64,000 bases of DNA. Origin: Solirubrobacterales bacterium (GTDB lineage Bacteria; Actinomycetota; Thermoleophilia; Solirubrobacterales; 70-9). Below, piece after piece: positions 25,521 through 63,531 of the stretch (position 1 is its first letter; the number at the start of each line of letters is the position of its first letter). The position numbers were made by a program, and so were the translations under genes. The notes under the pieces are model-generated. The model was not told the origin of the DNA. It ran no database searches and worked only from the letters and a program-made list of their open reading frames with translations. Location of the stretch: NCBI GenBank assembly GCA_017304845.1, contig JAFKLL010000014.1, positions 1 through 64,000 of the forward strand. The letters run 5' to 3'.

Positions 25521-25895
25521 TCAGCGCCGGTTCTCGGCCCAGAAATCGCGCAGCCAGGTCGGGCTCAGGCTCTCCTTCGGCAGCACCGCCTCCACCCCGG
25601 ACTCACCCGCGGCCCGCGGCAGCTCGTCCGGGTGGTGCGCGGAGATCAGCGCGACCAACGCCTCGGGATGCCGGTCCAGCAGCCGTCGGGCCACCTCGAC
25701 GCCATCCATCTCGGGCATGTTCACGTCGATCAGGACCAGATCGGGATCCTTCAGATCGGCCTCGTCGAGCGCCTGGGTTCCGCAGGTCGCCCCGCCGGCC
25801 CACGTGAACCCGGGCGCGGCGTCGACCACGGCGTGGATCACGTCGAGGAAACGAAGGTGGTCGTCGACCGCCAGCACTTTGACCGAGGTGGCCAT
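25521..25895 (-). CDS. Single-domain response regulator (receiver only)
   Basis: 124 residues from ATG 25895. It is a receiver with D11/D12 acidic pair, phospho-acceptor D57 in VLIDVNMPEMDG, Ser in LISAHH and Lys in VLPKES. No output domain follows. An ATG at 25934 could add 13 residues. It lies between a LuxR-type regulator and the membrane kinase, so it may act as a phosphate sink or a protein-protein switch in that system (inference). Confidence 0.85.
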   Translation of the reverse strand: MATSVKVLAVDDHLRFLDVIHAVVDAAPGFTWAGGATCGTQALDEADLKDPDLVLIDVNMPEMDGVEVARRLLDRHPEALVALISAHHPDELPRAAGESGVEAVLPKESLSPTWLRDFWAENRR

Positions 25896-34652: not shown

Positions 34653-35846
34653 TCAGCCCCGCGCTTCCCGGGGCATGCCCAGGGCTCGCTCGGCGATGAT
34701 GTTTCTCATGATCTCGGAGGCCCCGCCGGCCACCGTGTAGGTCCGGGCGTACAGGAACTCGTCCTGCCAGCGGCCGTTCTGACGCACGTCCGGATCGCCC
34801 TCGGTGAGGATCGAGCCGGCGCCCTGCAGGCTCATCGCGTACTCGGCCATGGCCAGGTTCAGCTCGCTGAAGACCAGCTTGCCGATCGGCACGTCCGAGG
34901 GCCGCTCGGCTCCCCGCAGCTCCCGGCCCAGCTTGAGCTGGACCAGCAGGTTGTTGATCTCGATCTCGGTCGCGAAGGAGGCGAGCCGCTGCCGCACGTC
35001 TTCGGAGTCGAGCGGCCGGCGGCCGCTGCCGTCGTCGGTGTCGGCCAGCTCCACCATCAGGTCGAGCAGCTGACGCAGACGGGCGCCGCCGGCCCCGATG
35101 CCGGAGCGTTCGGCGCCGAGGCTGTCCATCGCCACCTGCCAGCCGCGCTCGCGCTCGCCGAGCAGGGAGTCGGCCTCGATCCGCACGTCCTCCATGAAGA
35201 CCTCGCTGAAGTCCTCGGTGCCGGTGATCTCCCGCAGCGGCCTGATCTCCAGGCCGGCGGCGTCCATCGGCACGATGAAGGCGGAGATTCCGCGATGCCG
35301 GTCGAGCGAGGTGTCGCTGCGGGCCAGCAGGAAGCCGAAGTCGGCCCAGGTCGCGTTCGAGGACCAGACCTTCTGGCCGTTGACCAGGTAGCCGCCGTCC
35401 ACCGGCCTGGCCTCGGTCCGCATCGCCGCCAGGTCGGAGCCGGCGTCCGGCTCGCTGAACAGCTGGCACCAGGTCTCGCTGCCGTCGCGGATGGTCGGCA
35501 GGAAGCGGGCCTTCTGCTCCTCGGTGCCGAAGCGGATCAGGGCAAAGGCGGCGAGGTGGGTCTGGTCGGTCAGCGGCGGCAGCCCGGCCCGGGCGACCTC
35601 CTCGCTGATCACCAGGTCGTGGACCGGGTTCCACTCGCCGCTGCCGCCCCACTCCTCGGGCCACTCGGCCCCGAGGTAGCCGACCTCGTAGAGGCGGGCC
35701 CGCCAGGCCTTGCGCACTCGGTCCTCCTCCTCGGTCTCCGGGCTGCGGAAGCCGGCCCGGACCGGGATGTCCGGCGCCTCGGCCTCGAGGAAGGCCCGCA
35801 CCTCGCGGCGGAAGGCCTCGGTCTCGCGATCGTCGGCGATCCTCAT
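34653..35846 (-). CDS. Acyl-CoA dehydrogenase, FAD-motif subunit
   Basis: 397 residues from ATG 35846, which overlaps the hyuB stop (ATGA). It has WPEEWGGSGEWNPVHDLVIS, LFSEPDAGSDLAAMRTEA and LVNGQKVWSSNATWADFGFL, plus the C-terminal AGGASEIMRNIIAERALGMP. A strong HGGxG motif is missing; the sequence reads SLQGAGSILTE. It is complementary to the subunit encoded at 32741-33898. Together they likely form a heteromeric dehydrogenase for a bulky acyl-CoA. Confidence 0.88.
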   Translation of the reverse strand: MRIADDRETEAFRREVRAFLEAEAPDIPVRAGFRSPETEEEDRVRKAWRARLYEVGYLGAEWPEEWGGSGEWNPVHDLVISEEVARAGLPPLTDQTHLAAFALIRFGTEEQKARFLPTIRDGSETWCQLFSEPDAGSDLAAMRTEARPVDGGYLVNGQKVWSSNATWADFGFLLARSDTSLDRHRGISAFIVPMDAAGLEIRPLREITGTEDFSEVFMEDVRIEADSLLGERERGWQVAMDSLGAERSGIGAGGARLRQLLDLMVELADTDDGSGRRPLDSEDVRQRLASFATEIEINNLLVQLKLGRELRGAERPSDVPIGKLVFSELNLAMAEYAMSLQGAGSILTEGDPDVRQNGRWQDEFLYARTYTVAGGASEIMRNIIAERALGMPREARG

Positions 35847-38074
35847 CGCGGCAGCTCCTCGTGGACGGCGAGCGGCATGAAGTTCCAGCGCGGCGCCTCG
35901 CCCGCGTTCGCCACCTCGGTGTCGATCTGGGAGCCGCAGCCTGGGCAGCAGTAGCGCCGGAAGACGAGGTCGCCCTCGGGCCGCTCGGGGATCGGGGCGC
36001 CGATCGAGTCGCCGCTGACCGGCAGCTCCTCGGTCGCCGCCCACCACTTCCAGTTGACGGAGTTGCTGGCGAACTCGTGCTCGCAGGAGCGGCAGCGGTA
36101 GTAGCCGCGCTCGTCGATCTCCAGCCCTTCGCCGAGCACCTGGGGGCCGTCCTGCGGCACCGGCGGCCCGGGCTCGGCGCTGCCGCCCGAACCGTCGCCG
36201 ACCGGCAGGGCCCGTTCGCCCAGCGGCAGGGCCCGCCGCTCGGCCAGGCGCTCCTCGCGGAGGCGGGCGGTGGCGACCGGGTCGATGTCGTCGCCGGCCA
36301 TGACCACGCCGAAGTTCCGTTCGGCCGCCTCGGCGGTGACGAAGCCCCGCCGCACGTCCTCCAGGACCGCTTCCGGGTCCCGGATCAGCGGGTCGCCGAA
36401 GCCGGGGCCGCCGGTGGCGCGGATGTAGTAGCCGTCCTCGGGGGTGACCCGGAAGCCACGGCCACGGGCCGGGGGCCGCTCGGCGGTCTCGGCGTACTCC
36501 TCGACCGGCAGCTCCTCGCCACGGTCCCAGTGCTCCCGGACCGACTCCATCGCCCCACGGGCGAAGCGGATCGTCGCCCCCGCCCCGGGCTGCCCGCCGG
36601 CGATCGCCGAGGAGGGCGCGCTCATGCGGTTGTGGAAGACGACCACGTCCCAGGCCTCGGTGTCATAGGGGGTGCAGAACGACTCCAGCGCGAGGCCGCC
36701 GCGGTGACGGCCGGCGCCGCCGGTGTCGGCCGCGAAACGGGTGTCGAGGAAGAGGACCGGGCTCTGGCTCTCGTACTCCTCCACGTTGGGGATGAAGGCG
36801 TCGATCGTCTGGATGCCCATCATCGCGTTCTCGCCGTCACGATCCTGGACGGCGCTGGCGCCGCCGGAGCCGCCGGTGAAGACGTTCCAGAACCAGGGCT
36901 GCCCGTACTGGTTGGGGCCCTGCAGCCAGGCGAAGGTCCAGCTGCCCCAGGGGCCGCTGCGCCGCCGTGCCGCCTCCGGATGACCGGCCAGCAGGTAGTT
37001 GGAGGCCTCGAGGATCGCGTCGGTCCCGAACCAGCTGGCGTAGACCGTGGCCCCGGAGATCGGCGCCGGCTTGGTCGCGTTGACCAGGGTGCCCTCCGGC
37101 GCGACCACGGTGACCGGGTCGAGCAGGCCCTCGTTGAAGGGCAGGTCGGGCGCGTACACGGTGCCGAGCGCCGCCATCGCGTCGCCGATCGCCCCGACCT
37201 CGGTGCCGTTCAGCACGCCGGGCGCCTGCGGGTCGGTGCCGGTGTAGTCGACGGTGAGCTGGTCGCCGCGCTTGATCACGGCGGCCCGGATCGTGTAGAT
37301 CAGGTCGTCCTCGCCGTCGTGCTCCATGTGGGCGGCGCCACGGTAGACGCCGTCCGGCAGCTGGCTCAGCCGCTCGCGGAAGGCGGTGGCCGCGTTCTCG
37401 ATCTGGGCGGAGTGGATCGCCCGGATGCGATCGGCCCCGTGCTGCTCGATCATCGCCGAGCAGCGCTCCTTGCCCATCCAGACGGCGCCGGTGATCGCCT
37501 TGAGGTCGATCCCGGTCGCCTCGGGCAGACGCACGTTGGTCAGGAAGGCGTCGAGCACGTCCTGCCGGAACTTGCCGCCGTCGTAGAACTTGACCGGCGT
37601 GAACCTGACGTTCTCGCCGAACACGTCGGAGTGCTCGACCGAGTAGCCGCCCGGCACGGCGCCGCCGACGTCGGTGACGTGGGCGCTCACCCCCACCCAC
37701 ATCAGGATCTCGTCGCCGTCGAAGACCGGGGCGACGATCACCACGTCATGGGAGTGGAGCCCGCCGCCCTCGTAGGGGTCGTTGGCGAAGATCACGTCGC
37801 CGGGGCGCAGGTCGTCCTTGAACCGTTCCAGCGAGTGCCGGACCGTGTTCGAGATCGCGTAGCCCATCTGCAGCGACCAGGAGATCGTCGTCAGGATGTT
37901 GCCCTCGGCGTCGAGGCAGCCGCAGGCGAAGTCGGAGGCGGAGACGAAGAGGAAGGAGCCGGAGAGATTGACCAGAGCCCGGCCCATCTCGCGGTTCATG
38001 GTCAGCTCGTAGTTGTAGACGATCTCCGAGAGGACGGGATCGAACTCGGCCGTACCCTGGGCTTGCTGGGTCAT
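35843..38074 (-). CDS. hyuB: Hydantoinase B/oxoprolinase-type carboxylase subunit fused to acetone-carboxylase gamma-like zinc domain
   Basis: 743 residues. Residues 1 to about 560 are HyuB-like (EIVYNYELTMNREMGRALVN, FANDPYEGGGLHSHDVVIVA, WVGVSAHVTDVGGAVPGG, YIRATGGPGFGDPLIRDPEA). After an acidic/Pro linker, residues 658-743 form a separate domain with C661 and C664 (YRCRSCEHEF) and C709, C710, C713 (RYCCPGCGSQ), resembling the small gamma subunit of acetone carboxylase. Acetone, acetophenone and related carboxylases use HyuA/HyuB-like subunits to carboxylate ketones with ATP. The start overlaps the hyuA stop (ATGA). Hydantoin hydrolysis is less likely here. Confidence 0.85.
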   Translation of the reverse strand: MTQQAQGTAEFDPVLSEIVYNYELTMNREMGRALVNLSGSFLFVSASDFACGCLDAEGNILTTISWSLQMGYAISNTVRHSLERFKDDLRPGDVIFANDPYEGGGLHSHDVVIVAPVFDGDEILMWVGVSAHVTDVGGAVPGGYSVEHSDVFGENVRFTPVKFYDGGKFRQDVLDAFLTNVRLPEATGIDLKAITGAVWMGKERCSAMIEQHGADRIRAIHSAQIENAATAFRERLSQLPDGVYRGAAHMEHDGEDDLIYTIRAAVIKRGDQLTVDYTGTDPQAPGVLNGTEVGAIGDAMAALGTVYAPDLPFNEGLLDPVTVVAPEGTLVNATKPAPISGATVYASWFGTDAILEASNYLLAGHPEAARRRSGPWGSWTFAWLQGPNQYGQPWFWNVFTGGSGGASAVQDRDGENAMMGIQTIDAFIPNVEEYESQSPVLFLDTRFAADTGGAGRHRGGLALESFCTPYDTEAWDVVVFHNRMSAPSSAIAGGQPGAGATIRFARGAMESVREHWDRGEELPVEEYAETAERPPARGRGFRVTPEDGYYIRATGGPGFGDPLIRDPEAVLEDVRRGFVTAEAAERNFGVVMAGDDIDPVATARLREERLAERRALPLGERALPVGDGSGGSAEPGPPVPQDGPQVLGEGLEIDERGYYRCRSCEHEFASNSVNWKWWAATEELPVSGDSIGAPIPERPEGDLVFRRYCCPGCGSQIDTEVANAGEAPRWNFMPLAVHEELPR

Positions 38075-40161
38075 CGGTTCACCTCGATCTGCAGGTTGGC
38101 GAAGCCGTCGAGCGAGGCGTCGCAGCGGCAGGGCACGAGGATGGTCGAGTCGGTGTACTCGACGATCGCGGGGCCCGTGACCCGGGATCCCGGGTTGAAG
38201 TCGGTGGCGCGGTAGACCGGCATCTCGGTCAGCTCGACCGAGTCGGTGTCGGCCAGGGCGCGGCGGCTGCCGACCGGCAGCGGCGTCGAACCCAGCCCCT
38301 CGCCGTCGGCCTGGGCGACCGGCGGGCGCGGCACCTTGCCGACCCCCATCACGCGACAGGTCTTGACGTCGTAGCCGTTCTCCGGGGCGGCGGCGCCGGT
38401 GCCGTAGGTGGCGGCGTACCGGGAGTCGAACTCGGCCGCCGCCCGGGCGAACGACTCCTCGCCCGGGGTGCCGTCGCCGACCAGGTCGACCTCGAAGTGG
38501 AGGCTCTGGCCGGCGTAGGCCATCTCGACCGAGTGGCGGATCTCGGTCCGCTCATCGGGGATCGAGTGCACGTCGAGCGAGCCGCGGACCTGGCCTTCGA
38601 GCTGTTCGAAGAGGTCGCTCATCGAGGTCGCGCTGTCCGGCACCGGGACCCCGCCCGGGCCCAGCAGGTCCTTGGTCGAGCGGGCGACGCTGTAGGCCAG
38701 GTCGGTGGAGATCAGCCCGGAGGCCGAGAAGACCGAGGCGAGCGCGGGCACGATCACGCGGCTCATGCCGAGCTCACGCGCGACCGAGGCGCAGTGCAGC
38801 CCGCCCGCCCCTCCGAAGGAGACCAGGGCGAAGGCCCGGGGGTCGAGCCCGGCGAACACGGTGCGGAGCCGGACCGCGTCGGCCATCAGCGCGTTGACGA
38901 TGCGGAAGACTCCGGCCGCCGCGGCGACCTCGGTCATCCCGAGCCGCTCCGCCAGGGGAGCGAACGCCCTCTCGGCGGCCTCGCGGTCGAGGGCCATGTC
39001 GCCGCCGAGGAAGTACTCGGGGTCGAGCAGGCCGAGCAGCAGGTTGGCGTCGGTCACGGTCGGCTCGGTGCCGCCGCGGCCGTAACAGGCCGGGCCGGGC
39101 CGGGCGCCGGCGCTCTCGGGCCCGACCCGCATCGCGCCGTCGGGGCCGACCGTGGCCAGCGAGCCGCCGCCGGCGCCGACCGTGGTCACGTCGACCATGG
39201 TGGTCGCCAGGGCCTGCCGGTCGAGGAACTGCAGCGAGGTGGAGCGCACGTCGCCGTCCTCGATCAGGGCTACGTCGGTGCTGGTGCCGCCCATGTCGAA
39301 GGTGATCAGGTTGCCCTCGCCGCTCTCCTCGCCGAGGGCGCGGGAGGCGAGCACGCCGGCGACCGGGCCGGAGTAGATCGTCTGGCCGGCGGAGGTGACC
39401 GTGTTCTCGATGCTGCCGAGGCCGCCGTCGGACTTCATCAGCAGCAGCTGCCCCTCGAAGCCGCGTTCGCGCAGGCCGCTCAGCAGCTTCCCGGTGTAGG
39501 CCCGGAGCTCCGGGCCGGCGAAGGCGGTGATCACGGTGGTGCTCATGCGCTCGTACTCGCCGATCAGCGGCGCCGCCTCGAAGGAGGTCGCGACGTAGGC
39601 GTCGGGCGCCTCCTCGAGGATCACCCGCTTGGCGAGCTGCTCGTGCTCCGGGTTGCGGAAGGACCACAGGAAGCAGACCGCGAAGGACTTGATGCCCTTC
39701 TCCAGCGCGTTCCCGACCGCTCGCCGCAGCCCCTCCTCGTCGATCGGCACGACGACGCGGCCCTTGTAGTCGACCCGTTCGAGGACCTCCTCGACATCCT
39801 CACGCGGCACCAGCGGCACCGGGTGGGTGACCAGCGAGGGGTCGCGCTGCTGGTTGCGGTACATGCGGGCCAGCTGGTACAGGTCGCCGAAGCCCCTGGT
39901 GGTGAGGAGCGCGACCCGCTCACCCGCCCTGGTCAGGACCACGTTGGTGGTGACCGTGGTCGCGTGCAGGAACTCGTCGACCCGTCCCAGCAGCGAGCGG
40001 CTGTCGGTGCCGAGCGCGTCGGCCACCAGCTCGATGCCGTCGAACACGCCCTGCTCGAAGTCGGGCGGGGTCGACGGTGTCTTCCACCGCCGGAGGCCGC
40101 CGCCCGACTCCTGCAGGACGATGTCCGTGAAGGTGCCGCCGATGTCGATGCCGAGCCTCAA
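38071..40161 (-). CDS. hyuA: Hydantoinase A/oxoprolinase-type ATP-dependent subunit
   Basis: 696 residues. TTG 40161, overlapping the permease stop as TTGA, puts the phosphate-binding loop at the very start (RLGIDIGGTFTDIVLQE), where HyuA proteins have it. Further ASKHA-fold motifs are ITFDMGGTSTDVALIEDG, VDVTTVGAGGGSLA and FALVSFGGAGGLHCASVARE. HyuA binds and cleaves ATP to activate substrate or carbonate, working with HyuB. Coupling to an importer upstream and CoA-activating enzymes downstream favours a carboxylase role in catabolism over 5-oxoproline or hydantoin hydrolysis (inference). Confidence 0.9.
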   Translation of the reverse strand: MRLGIDIGGTFTDIVLQESGGGLRRWKTPSTPPDFEQGVFDGIELVADALGTDSRSLLGRVDEFLHATTVTTNVVLTRAGERVALLTTRGFGDLYQLARMYRNQQRDPSLVTHPVPLVPREDVEEVLERVDYKGRVVVPIDEEGLRRAVGNALEKGIKSFAVCFLWSFRNPEHEQLAKRVILEEAPDAYVATSFEAAPLIGEYERMSTTVITAFAGPELRAYTGKLLSGLRERGFEGQLLLMKSDGGLGSIENTVTSAGQTIYSGPVAGVLASRALGEESGEGNLITFDMGGTSTDVALIEDGDVRSTSLQFLDRQALATTMVDVTTVGAGGGSLATVGPDGAMRVGPESAGARPGPACYGRGGTEPTVTDANLLLGLLDPEYFLGGDMALDREAAERAFAPLAERLGMTEVAAAAGVFRIVNALMADAVRLRTVFAGLDPRAFALVSFGGAGGLHCASVARELGMSRVIVPALASVFSASGLISTDLAYSVARSTKDLLGPGGVPVPDSATSMSDLFEQLEGQVRGSLDVHSIPDERTEIRHSVEMAYAGQSLHFEVDLVGDGTPGEESFARAAAEFDSRYAATYGTGAAAPENGYDVKTCRVMGVGKVPRPPVAQADGEGLGSTPLPVGSRRALADTDSVELTEMPVYRATDFNPGSRVTGPAIVEYTDSTILVPCRCDASLDGFANLQIEVNR

Positions 40162-42897: not shown

Positions 42898-42946
42898 GAT
42901 CATTCCAGACCCTCGCCGTGGGCCAAGCCGATTCTGCGTGGAGAAG
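42898..42946 (-). promoter_or_regulatory. Operator-promoter of importer ATPase / carboxylase operon
   Basis: The palindrome ATTCTGCGTGGAGAAG (42931-42946) is followed on the minus strand, after 4 bp, by -35 TTGGCC (42921-42926), a 17-bp spacer and -10 ATGATC (42898-42903; a 16-bp spacer would give AATGAT). The same arrangement occurs at six other promoters in this window. The ATPase gene starts 60 bp beyond the -10. Confidence 0.7.
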
Positions 42947-44152: not shown

Positions 44153-44201
44153 ATTCTGTGTCCACGGAAGAGACCCGCAAAGCAGATTCTCTATCCAGAA
44201 T
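44153..44201 (-). promoter_or_regulatory. Operator-promoter of substrate-binding protein gene
   Basis: ATTCTCTATCCAGAAT (44186-44201, 5-bp perfect arms extended to GATTCT/AGAATC) precedes, after 4 bp, -35 TTTGCG (44176-44181), a 17-bp spacer and -10 CAGAAT (44153-44158) on the minus strand. The importer gene starts 53 bp beyond the -10 with a strong Shine-Dalgarno. Confidence 0.72.
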
Positions 44202-51999: not shown

Positions 52000-52893
52000 T
52001 CAGGACGTGGGTTTTGGTTTTGTTCGGTTTCTCGAGTCGGTTCGGGCCTCGTCTCCGCCCAGCCGGTCCAGGTGCGCCCGCGAGGCGCCTTCCAGGTGGA
52101 AGACGGCCCGTGAGATGTCCTGGACGGCCTCGCTGAGGCGCTGCCCGATCGCCGGGATCAGACGCTCCGGCATGAAGGACGAGTGGCCGGTGACGACCAT
52201 CAGCAAGATGGGGGTCCCGGTCGGGGAAAGGATCGGGGCGCCGACCGCGTTGTAGTCGGGCTCGTACTCGCCGATGCTGATCGAGTAGCCGCGCTCGCGG
52301 ACCTCGGCCAGCTCCTGCTTGAAGCGGGCGACCTGGGTGATCGACATCGGGGTGCGCGAGGGCAGCCCGTGCAGCTCGAGCATCTGGTCGATGGTCTCGT
52401 CCGGCTGGTGGGCGTAGTACGCCTTGGCCAGCACCGCGCCGTTGGGCGGGACCCGGCCGCCGAGCGGCGCCGTGCCCTTGGGATCGGGCCGGCCGCGCAT
52501 CTTGTCGATCACCATGAAGGAGTCGTCCTCCGCCTTCTGGCAGATCAACATGATCAGCTTGTAGCGCCGCACGAACTCGAGCGCCTTCATCCGGGCGGAG
52601 GTGAGGACCGCGCCCTCTTCGCTGACCGCGGCCCCGAGGTCACGCAGGCCGGTGCCGAGCTCGTAGTGCTTGCTCTCGCTGTCGAAGGCGAGCAGGTCGC
52701 CCTGCTCCAGGGTCTTGAGGATGTTGAAGCAGGTGCTGGGGTTCATCCCGAGCGCCTGCGCGATCTCGGTCATGGTCGCCGGCTCGTTGCCCCGGTCCCG
52801 CAGGTACCCGAAGATCGCGATGGTGTGACGCACCGCGGGCACCCCCCGGTTGATCCCGGAGGTGCTGGGGCTCATTTCGGTAAGGGCGGTCAT
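52000..52893 (-). CDS. IclR-family transcriptional regulator (candidate regulon master)
   Basis: 297 residues. The N-terminal winged helix is VRHTIAIFGYLRDRGNEPAT, EIAQALGMNPSTCFNILKTL; the IclR effector domain spans about residues 95-260 (GGRVPPNGAVLAKAYYA, RERGYSISIGEYEPDYNAVG, SPTGTPILLMVVTGHSSFMP). GAGGAG precedes the ATG. It is the only regulator encoded within the catabolic region and lies beside two copies of the 16-bp palindrome, one per divergent promoter. It is therefore the best candidate to bind all six palindromes. An effector is unknown. Confidence 0.9.
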   Translation of the reverse strand: MTALTEMSPSTSGINRGVPAVRHTIAIFGYLRDRGNEPATMTEIAQALGMNPSTCFNILKTLEQGDLLAFDSESKHYELGTGLRDLGAAVSEEGAVLTSARMKALEFVRRYKLIMLICQKAEDDSFMVIDKMRGRPDPKGTAPLGGRVPPNGAVLAKAYYAHQPDETIDQMLELHGLPSRTPMSITQVARFKQELAEVRERGYSISIGEYEPDYNAVGAPILSPTGTPILLMVVTGHSSFMPERLIPAIGQRLSEAVQDISRAVFHLEGASRAHLDRLGGDEARTDSRNRTKPKPTS

Positions 52894-52930: not shown

Positions 52931-52979
52931 ATGGTTGCAACGCCGAAAGCGAACGCAAACCTGTTTCTCCATAGAGAAT
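52931..52979 (-). promoter_or_regulatory. Operator-promoter of the IclR gene and downstream operon
   Basis: TTTCTCCATAGAGAAT (52964-52979) lies 4 bp from -35 TTTGCG (52954-52959), then a 17-bp spacer and -10 AACCAT (52931-52936), reading on the minus strand. The -10 is weak, as expected of an activator-dependent promoter. Its centre is 43 bp from that of the thiolase operator. Confidence 0.65.
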
Positions 52980-53006
52980 TTACGTGTGAGCGGACCTCGG
53001 CTCTCC

Positions 53007-53055
53007 TTTCTCTGGGGAGAATTTCCTTGGTCGGAGACCGGGCGCTGCCGATGCT
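53007..53055 (+). promoter_or_regulatory. Operator-promoter of thiolase operon (leaderless)
   Basis: TTTCTCTGGGGAGAAT (53007-53022), 4 bp, -35 TTGGTC (53027-53032), 17 bp, -10 GATGCT (53050-53055), then six bases to ATG 53062. No Shine-Dalgarno is present, so transcription should start at the start codon. Confidence 0.72.
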
Positions 53056-53061
53056 TCCCGC

Positions 53062-54231
53062 ATGCCAGAAGCTGTGATTGTCTCCACGCGTCGTACCCCG
53101 ATCGGCCGGGCCTTCAAGGGCTCGCTCAAGGACATGAGGCCCGACGACCTCGGCGGTTTCATCGTCCGCTCCCTGCTCGACGACCTCGAGGGATTCGATC
53201 CGCTGGAGATCGAGGACGTGATCTGCGGCTCGGCCATCCAGGCCGGCGAACAGAGCATGAACCTCGGCAAGGTGGTGGCCGCCCTGGCCGGGCTGCCGGA
53301 CGAGGTCGGGGGCAGCACCGTCAACCGCTTCTGCGCCTCCTCCCTGCAGTCGATCCGGATCGCCTCGCATGCGATCCAGGCCGGCGAGGGCGACGCCTAC
53401 CTCGCGGTCGGCGTCGAGTCGGTCAGCCGGGTCGGGGGCCGCGCCTTCGATCCCGAGCAGGACGCCAACCCCCGCTTCACCGACCCCTCACGCCCCGACT
53501 ACGTCAACGACCACTACATCTCGATGGGCCTCACCGCCGAGAACGTGGCCGACAGGTGGGGCGTCAGCCGGGAGCAGATGGACGCCTTCGCAGCGCTTTC
53601 GCAGAATCGTGCCGTGGCCGCTCAGGAGAGCGGATTCTTCGCCGACGAGATCACTCCCGTCCTTCTCTCCGACGGGACTCTGGTCGAGCGGGACGACGGC
53701 CCGCGGCCCGGCACGACCCCTGAGACGCTCGCCCAGCTCAAGCCCGCCTTCCGCGAGGACGGCCGCGTGACCGCCGGCAACTCCTGCCCGCTCAACGACG
53801 GCGCCGCCGCGGCGCTGATCATGTCCGACACCAGGGCGGCCGAACTGGGCCTCACCCCGATGGCCCGCATCGTCTCCTCGGCCGTGACCGGATGCCCGCC
53901 GGAGCTGATGGGCATCGGCCCGATCGAGGCCGTGAAGGTGGCGCTGAAGCGGGCCGGCATGAGCATCGGCGACGTCGACGTGGTCGAGCTGAACGAGGCC
54001 TTCGCCGCGCAGGTGATCCCGATCTGCGACGAGGTCGGCATCGACATCGAGTCGCAGCTCAACCCGCATGGCGGCGCGATCGCGCTCGGCCATCCCTTCG
54101 GCATGACCGGCGTCCGGATCATGACGACTCTCCTCCACGACCTGAGGGTCCTGGACGGGAGCGTCGGGCTGGAAACCATGTGCGTCGGCGGTGGCCAGGG
54201 CATGGCCATGGTCGTCGAACGACTCTCTTAG
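53062..54231 (+). CDS. Thiolase (acetyl-CoA acyltransferase)
   Basis: 389 residues. The acyl-enzyme cysteine is C91 (NRFCASSLQS), the His is in NPHGGAIALGHPFGMTG, and the second Cys in TMCVGGGQGMA, giving a full degradative thiolase set. It cleaves 3-ketoacyl-CoA with CoA to acetyl-CoA (or propionyl-CoA) and a shortened acyl-CoA, completing the beta-oxidation encoded around it. The mRNA is probably leaderless. An acyl-CoA dehydrogenase and SDR follow on the same strand. Confidence 0.94.
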   Translation: MPEAVIVSTRRTPIGRAFKGSLKDMRPDDLGGFIVRSLLDDLEGFDPLEIEDVICGSAIQAGEQSMNLGKVVAALAGLPDEVGGSTVNRFCASSLQSIRIASHAIQAGEGDAYLAVGVESVSRVGGRAFDPEQDANPRFTDPSRPDYVNDHYISMGLTAENVADRWGVSREQMDAFAALSQNRAVAAQESGFFADEITPVLLSDGTLVERDDGPRPGTTPETLAQLKPAFREDGRVTAGNSCPLNDGAAAALIMSDTRAAELGLTPMARIVSSAVTGCPPELMGIGPIEAVKVALKRAGMSIGDVDVVELNEAFAAQVIPICDEVGIDIESQLNPHGGAIALGHPFGMTGVRIMTTLLHDLRVLDGSVGLETMCVGGGQGMAMVVERLS

Positions 54232-60964: not shown

Positions 60965-61081
60965 TCAGTACACCCCGCACATGCCGTCGATCGAGACGTC
61001 CTCGACCAGCAGCTCCTCTTCGACCAGCGGGTCGGGTTCCGTGGCCTCGCCGGCCTCGGGATCCTGTTCCTGCTCGCTCAT
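60965..61081 (-). CDS. mftA: Mycofactocin precursor peptide MftA
   Basis: A 38-residue ORF beginning MSEQEQDPEAGEATEP and ending VSIDGMCGVY. The C-terminal IDGMCGVY is the diagnostic mycofactocin precursor ending; the final Val-Tyr becomes the redox cofactor core. The leader is strongly acidic, with the LVEEELLVEDV helix recognised by MftB. GGAGGAG lies six bases upstream of ATG 61081. It is the first gene of mftABCDEF, three bases before mftB. Easily missed because of its size. Confidence 0.97.
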   Translation of the reverse strand: MSEQEQDPEAGEATEPDPLVEEELLVEDVSIDGMCGVY

Positions 61082-61117: not shown

Positions 61118-61166
61118 AAGCTAGAACAGGCCGGAAAGCCGGCCAAGGCGATTCTGAGGAGAGATT
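61118..61166 (-). promoter_or_regulatory. Operator-promoter of mft operon
   Basis: ATTCTGAGGAGAGATT (61151-61166) lies 4 bp from -35 TTGGCC (61141-61146), then a 17-bp spacer and -10 TAGCTT (61118-61123) on the minus strand. The predicted leader is about 30 nt and carries the Shine-Dalgarno. No MftR-type TetR gene is adjacent. Confidence 0.73.
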
Positions 61167-61174
61167 CCGATGAG

Positions 61175-61957
61175 TCAGGCGGTCATGCCGCCGTCGGCGG
61201 GGATCACCGCTCCGGTCAGGCCGGAGGCCTCCGGCCCGCAGAGGAAGCGGATCGTCGCGGCGACCTCCTCCGGGCGGAGCAGCCGGTCGAGCAGCTGATG
61301 CGGGGCGAACTCCCCCGGGTCGGCGAGCCCGTAGACCTCGGCCGAGGCGGCCAGCATCTCGGTGTCGGTGGAGCCGGGGCTGACCACGTTCGCCGTCACC
61401 TCGGTGCCGCGGAGGTCGGCGGCCAGGCCTTTGACGTAGCCGACCACCGCGTTCTTGCTGGCCCCGTAGGCGGAGAGACGAGGATGGGCTCGCCCGGCGG
61501 CGGCGGAGGCGACCGCCACGAAACGGCCGGGACCTCCCCGCTCCAGCATCCCGGGGACCACCGCCTCGACCAGGTGCCTGACGCCGTGGAAGTTCACGTC
61601 GAACAGCTCCCGCCAGACCGCCCCGTCGGTGTCCCATGCCTCGCCACCGGCGATCCGGCCGGCGGCGGCGACCGCCGCGTCGACCGGGCCCAGCTCGGCC
61701 TCGATCTCGGCCACCGCGTCGGCGACCGCCGTCGCCGATCTCACGTCCGCGACCACGCCGATGGCCTCCGTCCCCTTCCCGCATGCCTCGACCGTGTCCC
61801 GCAGCTCCGCCTCGCCGGACGGCTCCGGGCGGGCCTCCCCGCCGCCCGTCTGGTCGGCGATATCGATCAGGCCGACCCTCCAGCCGGCGGAGGCGAGCCC
61901 GGCCGCGGCCGCGGCTCCGATCCCTCTCGCCGCTCCGGTCACCACGGCTACCGGCAT
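61175..61957 (-). CDS. SDR-family oxidoreductase, mycofactocin-coupled type
   Basis: 260 residues. Cofactor motif VTGAARGIGAAAAAGLASAG, AAAGRIAGG, catalytic Ser/Tyr/Lys in VASAAAGRAHPRLSAYGASK, and SPGSTDTEMLAASAEVYGLA. The insertion after strand 2 (ADQTGGGEARPEPSGEA) and the location directly upstream of mftA fit the mycofactocin-coupled SDR subfamily. It follows the SnoaL-like gene by 28 bp and is likely co-transcribed with it. The start lacks a clear Shine-Dalgarno; ATG 61957 was chosen from the NAD motif. Confidence 0.85.
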   Translation of the reverse strand: MPVAVVTGAARGIGAAAAAGLASAGWRVGLIDIADQTGGGEARPEPSGEAELRDTVEACGKGTEAIGVVADVRSATAVADAVAEIEAELGPVDAAVAAAGRIAGGEAWDTDGAVWRELFDVNFHGVRHLVEAVVPGMLERGGPGRFVAVASAAAGRAHPRLSAYGASKNAVVGYVKGLAADLRGTEVTANVVSPGSTDTEMLAASAEVYGLADPGEFAPHQLLDRLLRPEEVAATIRFLCGPEASGLTGAVIPADGGMTA

Positions 61958-61985: not shown

Positions 61986-62462
61986 TCACGGGTTCCTCTC
62001 GAGCCGGTGGAAGCCCCACTCCTCCGGGAAGTTTTCCGCGTCGACCACGACCAGCCGGCGTGCGGCGATCTTCCAACCGTCAGCGGTACGGACCAGGGCG
62101 TCGTGGTACTGGGCCCGCAGGTTCCAGTCCGGTCCTTCGGCCCTGGTCCGGTGCCAGGCATGGATCACCGACCGGGCGCGGGCGCGGTTCTCCCCCTCGA
62201 ACTCGACGATCACGTTCGAGAGGTGATGGCTGGTGCTCTCGAACAGGGCGAGATCGCGCGCCGCCTCGTCCCTCCGGGCCGCGCGACCGACCGAGGGCGG
62301 TCCGACCCCGGGCCCGTAGTCGGCCTCGCAGTCCTCGGTGAAGAGCATCGCCAAGCCGTCGGGGTCATTCAGGTCGCAGCGGTAGCAGTACTCGACCAAC
62401 ACATCCTCGATCGACTGCCGGTCCGCCAATCTTCCGAGCGTCTCTCGATCGGGTGAGGTCAT
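61986..62462 (-). CDS. SnoaL-like / NTF2-fold protein
   Basis: 158 residues with the nuclear-transport-factor-2 fold: DRQSIEDVLVEYCYRCDLND, LAMLFTEDCEADYGPG, and the C-terminal DALVRTADGWKIAARRLVVV. Relatives include ketosteroid isomerase-like enzymes and aromatic-ring dioxygenase small subunits, with dehydratase or isomerase roles. A reaction cannot be assigned. The mRNA is probably leaderless. It shares one operator with the divergent LLM gene. Confidence 0.87.
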   Translation of the reverse strand: MTSPDRETLGRLADRQSIEDVLVEYCYRCDLNDPDGLAMLFTEDCEADYGPGVGPPSVGRAARRDEAARDLALFESTSHHLSNVIVEFEGENRARARSVIHAWHRTRAEGPDWNLRAQYHDALVRTADGWKIAARRLVVVDAENFPEEWGFHRLERNP

Positions 62463-62468
62463 GAACCA

Positions 62469-62550
62469 AAGCTAGGGACTGGCCGCTCCGCGGCTAAGCC
62501 CATTCTCAGAGGAAAAAGACCTCGAACCAGCCCCGCTCGCCGTCTACGTT
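62469..62550. promoter_or_regulatory. Shared operator with two divergent leaderless promoters
   Basis: One palindrome, ATTCTCAGAGGAAAAA (62502-62517), serves both sides. To the left: 4 bp, -35 TTAGCC (62492-62497), 17 bp, -10 TAGCTT (62469-62474), six bases to the ATG of the SnoaL-like gene. To the right: 4 bp, -35 TCGAAC (62522-62527), 17 bp, -10 TACGTT (62545-62550), six bases to ATG 62557. Confidence 0.75.
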
Positions 62551-62556
62551 CGCCCG

Positions 62557-63531
62557 ATGAAGATCGGGCTGTTCTTGGACATGAGGAATCCGACTCCCTG
62601 GCAGCGGGACTGGCACGGGCTCTACGAAGGCTGGATCGAGCGGCTGACCTGGGCGGAGTCGATCGGGATCGACTCGGTCTGGCTGACCGAGCACCATCTC
62701 TTCGCCGACGGCTACCTGAGCCAGCCCCTGACCCTCGCCGCGGCGATCGCCGCCCGGACCGAGCGCCTCCGGATCGGCACCGCCATCCTCCAGGCCCCGC
62801 TGCGGCCGGCGATCGACATCGCCGAGCAGGCGGCGACGGTCGACATCATCAGCGGCGGGCGGGTGGAGCTGGGCCTGGGCGCCGGCTACCGGATCCCGGA
62901 ATGGCGGGCCTACGGCGCCGACGGCAGCCGCCGCTTCGAGCTGCTGGAAGAACGCGCGGCCGAGATCCGGCGGCTGTGGGAGAGCGGCGAGGCCACTCCG
63001 CCCCCGGTCCAGTCGAGGCCGCCGATCTGGATCGGCGGGGAAGGGCCGCGTGGCGCCCGCATCGCGGGACGGCTCGGCGAAGGCCTGCTGGCCCTGATCC
63101 CCGAGCTGCTCACGCCGTACCGCGACACGATGGCCGAGCACCACCCCGGGCGGCAGCCGACGATGGGCGGCTGCGCCAACCTGATCCTGGCCGACGATCC
63201 GGAAGCGTCCTGGCAGCGGATCAAGCCGCATCTCGAGCACCAGTGGCGGACCTACTTCGAGTACGGCGACGAGGGCCGCGACCGCGGCCTCCTCCCCAGC
63301 GCCGACCCCGAGGACCTGCGTCGGAGGGAGGGACCGCCGCTGCTGCCCGGTTTCGACGTCGTGACCCCGGAGGCCGCCCTGGAACGGCTCGAACCCTGGC
63401 TTGCTCCGCTACCCGCCGAGCACGTCTACTTCTGGGGTTCCATCGCCGGCATGCCGGATGACCTGGTCCACCGCCACATCGAGCTCCTGGGCGGGGAACT
63501 GGCTCCCCGCCTCCGGTCGCTCGCGGCCTGA
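62557..63531 (+). CDS. LLM-class flavin-dependent oxidoreductase
   Basis: 324 residues of the luciferase-like barrel. Motifs: WAESIGIDSVWLTEHHLFAD, LRIGTAILQAPLRPAIDIAE, VDIISGGRVELGLGAGYRIP, PPIWIGGEGPRGARIAGRLG. It may use F420 or FMN; members include monooxygenases and F420-dependent dehydrogenases. Its place in the palindrome regulon suggests a substrate-specific redox or oxygenation step. It converges on a partial gene with only 4 bp between stops. Confidence 0.9.
   Translation: MKIGLFLDMRNPTPWQRDWHGLYEGWIERLTWAESIGIDSVWLTEHHLFADGYLSQPLTLAAAIAARTERLRIGTAILQAPLRPAIDIAEQAATVDIISGGRVELGLGAGYRIPEWRAYGADGSRRFELLEERAAEIRRLWESGEATPPPVQSRPPIWIGGEGPRGARIAGRLGEGLLALIPELLTPYRDTMAEHHPGRQPTMGGCANLILADDPEASWQRIKPHLEHQWRTYFEYGDEGRDRGLLPSADPEDLRRREGPPLLPGFDVVTPEAALERLEPWLAPLPAEHVYFWGSIAGMPDDLVHRHIELLGGELAPRLRSLAA

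What the first reader, a model, noticed from the sequence alone, without database searches (positions are those of the whole stretch)
62463..62556. A single operator drives two divergent leaderless promoters in mirror symmetry
The palindrome at 62502-62517 has a -35 exactly 4 bp away on each side, each with a 17-bp spacer and each -10 ending six bases before an ATG. The 94-bp gap is thus fully explained by one symmetric control element. It is a compact design seldom seen so exactly.
Basis: seen in the sequence. Interest (0 to 1): 0.6.

Follow-up and report, generated by a model that had tools for sequence, protein, structure and literature searches.

The report
Shared IclR operator between divergent promoters
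A short DNA switch between two oppositely pointing genes is one of several copies, at a fixed distance from the promoters, that probably let one regulator turn on a degradation pathway together with its unusual cofactor, mycofactocin.

Summary
The 16-mer at 62502-62517 lies exactly midway between two TAnnnT boxes, each 6 nt before an ATG. By itself the palindrome is no better than chance (4 of 8 pairs) and the -35 hexamers match only 3 of 6. Comparison rescues it. The 14-mer TTCTCAGAGGAAAA (62503-62516) is a one-mismatch copy of TTCTS-N4-SAGAA. That motif recurs upstream of the cluster's own IclR regulator, thiolase, ABC transporter and mycofactocin genes, and at orthologous genes of three other genomes. 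A matrix trained only on eight other sites in those genomes ranks it 6th of 63,985 window positions. Leaving this site out, 19 of 28 site-gene directions have a -10 core exactly 28-29 bp beyond the motif. IclR and SnoaL orthologs occur in the same 4 of 232 genomes. Best reading: an IclR-family regulator, probably an activator, binds a dyad at a fixed distance upstream of -35; where genes diverge one site serves both, so mirror symmetry follows. The site before mftA, with no MftR above cut-off in this genome, suggests IclR control of mycofactocin synthesis. Transcript starts, IclR binding and direction of regulation are inferred.

The parts
62503..62516 (.).
   Evidence: rank 6 of 63,985 with a matrix trained on eight sites of relatives
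62522..62527 (+). -35 TCGAAC of the LLM promoter (weak)
   Evidence: same place relative to the operator as the TTG-like element of other promoters
62545..62550 (+). -10 TACGTT of the LLM promoter, 28 bp after the operator, 6 nt before ATG
   Evidence: position conserved in orthologs
62557..63531 (+). LLM-class (luciferase-like) oxidoreductase gene, probably leaderless
   Evidence: PF00296, E 7.4e-44
62492..62497 (-). -35 TTAGCC of the SnoaL-like promoter (weak)
62469..62474 (-). -10 TAGCTT of the SnoaL-like promoter, 28 bp after the operator, 6 nt before ATG
61986..62462 (-). SnoaL-like (NTF2-fold) protein gene, probably leaderless
   Evidence: PF13577, E 1.8e-26
52000..52893 (-). IclR-family regulator, proposed to bind the operator
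   Evidence: PF01614 and PF09339 over cut-off; ortholog in the same 4 of 232 genomes as the SnoaL-like gene
52965..52978 (.). Exact motif copy; faces the IclR gene with xAnnnT at 28
53008..53021 (.). Exact motif copy; faces the thiolase gene with xAnnnT at 28
53062..54231 (+). Thiolase gene, first of a + strand operon
   Evidence: PF00108, PF02803
61152..61165 (.). One-mismatch motif copy upstream of mftA
61118..61123 (-). -10 TAGCTT of the presumed mftA promoter, 28 bp after the motif
60965..61081 (-). mftA, mycofactocin precursor peptide (ends SIDGMCGVY), start of the mft genes
   Evidence: translation; MftB, C, D, E by NCBIfam
61175..61957 (-). Mycofactocin-coupled SDR
   Evidence: TIGR04504, 282.5 bits, over cut-off 250
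44187..44200 (.). Exact motif copy upstream of the substrate-binding protein, CAGAAT at 28
42932..42945 (.). Exact motif copy upstream of the ABC transporter ATPase, AATGAT at 27

Best explanation
62503-62516 is the operator of the IclR-family regulator encoded at 52000-52893. A regulator dimer bound there sits 5 bp upstream of a weak -35 on each side, centred about 47.5 bp upstream of two probable transcript starts that coincide with the ATGs of the SnoaL-like gene and the LLM oxidoreductase. Because the site is a dyad and the distance to the -10 is fixed (28-29 bp), one dimer can contact RNA polymerase at either promoter. It most likely activates both when a pathway metabolite is present. 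The same operator, at the same distance, serves the regulator's own gene, the thiolase operon, the substrate-binding protein and mftA. Shown by computation: the motif, its spacing, its conservation and the co-occurrence. Inferred: transcript starts, IclR as the binder, activation rather than repression, and the ligand.
For: The motif is about 25 times denser between genes than within them over six regions of four genomes (18 in 14,896 bases against 9 in 183,540). Strict matrix rank 6 of 63,985; 0.0007 such scores expected by chance in a gap of this length. Leaving out 62503, 19 of 28 site-gene directions have xAnnnT at 28-29 bp, against a mean of 1.3 at other offset pairs. All three other single-site divergent pairs with -10 cores on both sides are mirror-symmetric. 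IclR and SnoaL orthologs in the same 4 of 232 genomes; the motif lies upstream of the IclR gene in all four, and its recognition-helix region is conserved. The TTC-N8-GAA frame fits published IclR group 1 motifs (PMC8222616).
Against: No transcript, binding or expression data. The site has one mismatch and pairs poorly as a palindrome. Only four genomes, three of them from one family, so the promoters are not independent. Nine of 28 directions miss the spacing. The orthologous site in G161 ranks only 11th in its region. Genome-wide the motif at up to one mismatch is only modestly above its reversed control (259 against 186), and the composite pattern also has background hits elsewhere. Fixed spacing suggests activation but does not prove it.
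Confidence: 0.65

Rival explanations
1. Same IclR operator, but the protein represses or has a dual role: bound next to -35 it hinders polymerase on both sides until a ligand releases it.
For: The IclR family contains repressors, activators and dual regulators (PMC8222616). The regulator's own promoter has the same layout, which would fit simple negative autoregulation.
Against: The site lies upstream of -35, not over it, and the spacing to -10 is held at 28-29 bp in 19 of 28 directions; repressors seldom need such precision (established knowledge, recalled).
Confidence: 0.22
2. The operator is real but another regulator, encoded elsewhere, binds it.
For: Binding was not tested. I did not list every regulator in the four genomes, and IclR and SnoaL/LLM genes lie on different contigs in G161.
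Against: The motif stands upstream of the IclR gene in all four genomes; same-genome co-occurrence; motif frame fits IclR group 1.
Confidence: 0.09
3. There is no operator: two ordinary leaderless promoters happen to face away from a chance match.
For: Taken alone the palindrome is no better than shuffled sequence, and leaderless TANNNT promoters are common in Actinobacteria (PMC3160421, passages).
Against: Rank 6 of 63,985 by an independently trained matrix; the same element and spacing at the orthologous gene pair in G031 and G161.
Confidence: 0.04

Closest known systems
IclR-family regulators with group 1 motifs (PMC8222616), such as GenR of Corynebacterium (ATTCC-N7(5)-GGAAT)
   Same: IclR HTH and C-terminal domains; palindromic WTTC...GAAW site upstream of its own gene and of nearby catabolic genes; site centre within the -20 to -80 zone reported as most frequent
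   Different: Even-length TTC-N8-GAA with T after TTC, whereas the WTT subgroup listed there is odd-length; spacing to the -10 fixed at 28-29 bp; target set includes mycofactocin genes
PrfA box shared by the divergent plcA and hly promoters (PMC3443378, passages)
   Same: One palindromic activator box serves two divergent promoters; PrfA boxes have a fixed place relative to the transcript start
   Different: PrfA is a Crp relative with the box centred at -41.5; here an IclR-type protein is proposed, centred near -47.5, with leaderless genes
Leaderless TANNNT promoters of Actinobacteria (PMC3160421, passages)
   Same: TANNNT about 12 bp before the start codon, degenerate or absent -35
   Different: Nothing; the two -10 boxes are typical of the class
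MftR control of mycofactocin synthesis (PMC8728441, passages)
   Same: A palindromic operator upstream of mftA
   Different: MftR is TetR-type with a T-N2-GGCA-N5-TGCC-N2-A palindrome, which is not found near mftA here; G000 has no MftR above the cut-off

Membership tests
IclR-family regulator (protein 52000-52893) | IclR HTH and IclR C-terminal domains | tested here: met
   PF01614 69.5 bits (cut-off 24) and PF09339 32.2 bits (cut-off 22); IclR-family PDB matches
IclR group 1 operator (site 62503-62516) | TYC-N7/8-GRA palindrome upstream of the regulator and its targets | tested here: met
   Motif family is TTC-N8-GAA; 62503 itself reads TTC-N8-AAA, one mismatch
IclR group 1 operator (site 62503-62516) | Binding by the IclR protein | not testable with these tools
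   Needs EMSA or footprinting
Shared divergent activator site | One site at an equal, fixed distance from both promoters | tested here: met
   28/28 in the window and G031, 29/29 in G161, 28/28 at a G036 transporter pair
Shared divergent activator site | Activates both promoters | not testable with these tools
   Needs reporters and a regulator deletion
Leaderless genes | TANNNT ending 6-7 nt before the start codon | tested here: met
   Both genes; the same offset is the peak among 81 called genes, 8 of 81
Leaderless genes | Transcript starts at the start codon | not testable with these tools
   Needs 5'-end mapping
MftR-controlled mycofactocin cluster | MftR (TIGR03968) and its palindrome near mftA | tested here: not met
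   Best 44.8 bits against cut-off 224.9 in G000, a 75% complete genome; the palindrome has no match near mftA at one mismatch

The most novel reading that the evidence does not exclude
An IclR-family activator has replaced MftR as the controller of mycofactocin synthesis in some lineages, tying cofactor supply to one catabolic regulon. Its promoters use one composite layout (operator, 5 bp, TTG-like -35, 17-18 bp, -10), and divergent pairs share one symmetric site.
Probability: 0.45. Interest if true: 0.6.

Novelty: new member of a known kind. Interest (0 to 1): 0.45.

Why it matters
The regulon links mycofactocin synthesis to a mycofactocin-coupled SDR, an LLM oxidoreductase, beta-oxidation-type genes and an ABC transporter under one switch, which suggests which pathway the cofactor serves in these bacteria. 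G036 gives a natural contrast: its mft cluster has MftR beside it and no such site. The fixed spacing also makes a clean test of how an IclR protein contacts polymerase.

Tried and rejected
The palindrome judged alone: rejected as evidence, 4 of 8 pairs. Consensus sigma-70 scan: nothing found. MftR operator: not near mftA. Genome-wide counts of the motif or of the composite pattern as proof: too much background. One search gave 259 against 186 for the reversed control. One search gave 15 hits in the four IclR genomes, 12 of them at sites described here (one of these the far side of a site already counted), against 22 hits in 20 genomes of the order without the ortholog; the reversed-pattern control gave 7 in the four. 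Searching beyond the order for the IclR ortholog: only the window's own genome among 396 genomes of the phylum at E <= 1e-55. Papers: mycofactocin with IclR gave one paper, whose passages are unrelated; Thermoleophil- with mycofactocin gave none; a search for divergent promoters with a single activator site gave none; the listings of three searches on IclR activators showed nothing that I read on promoter spacing. Structure prediction was not run.

Full report
Setting. The window is one contig (C14) of a 75% complete genome of 59 contigs. A record holding a related gene pair is labelled a Solirubrobacterales MAG. The gap 62463-62556 separates a SnoaL-like gene (61986-62462, -) from a luciferase-like oxidoreductase (62557-63531, +). 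Beside them lie a mycofactocin-coupled SDR, mftA and mftB, C, D and E. Further in are beta-oxidation-type genes, a thiolase, an IclR-family regulator and an ABC transporter.

Observation. Two parts are weak on their own. The palindrome pairs at 4 of 8 positions, and 1815 of 2000 shuffled gaps contain a 16-mer with 5 or more pairs. The -35 hexamers match 3 of 6 each. So the claim could not stand on this sequence alone.

The motif. Comparing the gap with orthologous gaps and then with the IclR/thiolase gaps showed a repeated 14-mer, TTCTS-N4-SAGAA. In the window it occurs 12 times at up to one mismatch against 3.06 expected, and none of 100 shuffles reached 12. In six regions from four genomes it is about 25 times denser between genes than inside them, 18 in 14,896 bases against 9 in 183,540. 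The gene calls behind this are my own simple codon model, and the regions were chosen because they hold the genes of interest. As a stricter test I built a matrix from eight sites in relatives, leaving out every site at SnoaL or LLM genes and every window site. It ranks 62502 sixth of 63,985 positions, and the five above it are all intergenic sites of this cluster. Random first-order sequence gives 0.0007 scores this high per gap of this length. The eight training sites were themselves picked with the 14-mer pattern, so the test is independent of this site but not of the pattern. The orthologous sites rank 3rd (G031) and 1st and 2nd (G036) in their contig regions, but only 11th in G161.

The spacing. 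I took 31 site-to-gene directions. Without 62503 and the stray 4930, 28 remain. Of these, 19 have a -10 core (xAnnnT) starting 28 or 29 bp after the motif; other offset pairs average 1.3. The nine misses are: six are the non-facing sides of the paired IclR/thiolase sites, one is the weak 44127, one has the core at 27 (42932), and one is mftA of G161. Aligned at the operator, positions +6 to +8 read T, T, G in 18, 17 and 15 of 21 promoters, so a weak -35 also sits at a fixed place. The directions come from orthologous genes and are not independent, so I do not lean on the binomial value.

The mirror. Three places besides the window have one site facing -10 cores on both sides: SnoaL/LLM in G031 (28/28), SnoaL/LLM in G161 (29/29) and a divergent transporter pair in G036 (28/28). 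In G036 the SnoaL and LLM genes lie on different contigs, and each has its own site at 28. So the symmetry is what a fixed-distance, dyad-symmetric site produces when two genes diverge. In G161 a single exact site also lies between the IclR gene and mftA, but the mftA side lacks a standard -10 at 28-29.

The regulator. Orthologs of the IclR protein (E <= 1e-60) and of the SnoaL-like protein (E <= 1e-20) occur in the same 4 of 232 genomes of the order. The IclR gene has the motif upstream in all four, and its recognition-helix region is conserved. Published IclR group 1 motifs share the TTC-N7/8-GAA frame (PMC8222616: abstract, part 1 of the introduction, one results section and passages read). 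That paper states that the family contains activators, repressors and dual regulators. I favour activation because the site lies upstream of -35, its distance is fixed, and the promoter boxes are weak; this is inference.

Mycofactocin. The mftA upstream region has a one-mismatch site 28 bp before TAGCTT. In M. smegmatis the cluster is controlled by the TetR-type MftR (PMC8728441, passages). G000 has no MftR over the cut-off (best 44.8 bits; cut-off 224.9), with the caveat that the genome is incomplete. G036 has MftR at 246 bits beside its mft cluster and no IclR site there (best score 6.8). In G031 the mft contig is cut at its start, so it could not be tested. This suggests a change of regulator in some lineages. 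My searches found no paper tying IclR to mycofactocin; the library holds open-licence papers only.

Known or new. Shared operators for divergent promoters are known (PrfA box, PMC3443378, passages), and leaderless TANNNT promoters are common in Actinobacteria (PMC3160421, passages). The regulon is a new member of a known kind. The freshest part is the link to mycofactocin.

Noticed in passing
L053 (G161 C74:31857-31870): In G161 the IclR ortholog and mftA are divergent neighbours with one exact motif copy between them.
   Followed up: partly
L094 (G036 C124:5500-10500): The mft cluster of G036 sits beside an MftR-type TetR gene over the curated cut-off and has no IclR-type site, unlike G000 and G161.
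   Followed up: partly
window 52965-53021: The two IclR/thiolase sites are 43 bp apart centre to centre, and 53 bp apart in both G031 and G036, about one helical turn different.
   Followed up: no
window 35843-40161: A hydantoinase B/oxoprolinase-type gene and, judged by eye only, a hydantoinase A-like gene lie beside the transporter, a possible clue to the pathway's substrate.
   Followed up: no
window 25531-25544: One exact motif copy lies inside a called gene away from the cluster, probably chance.
   Followed up: no
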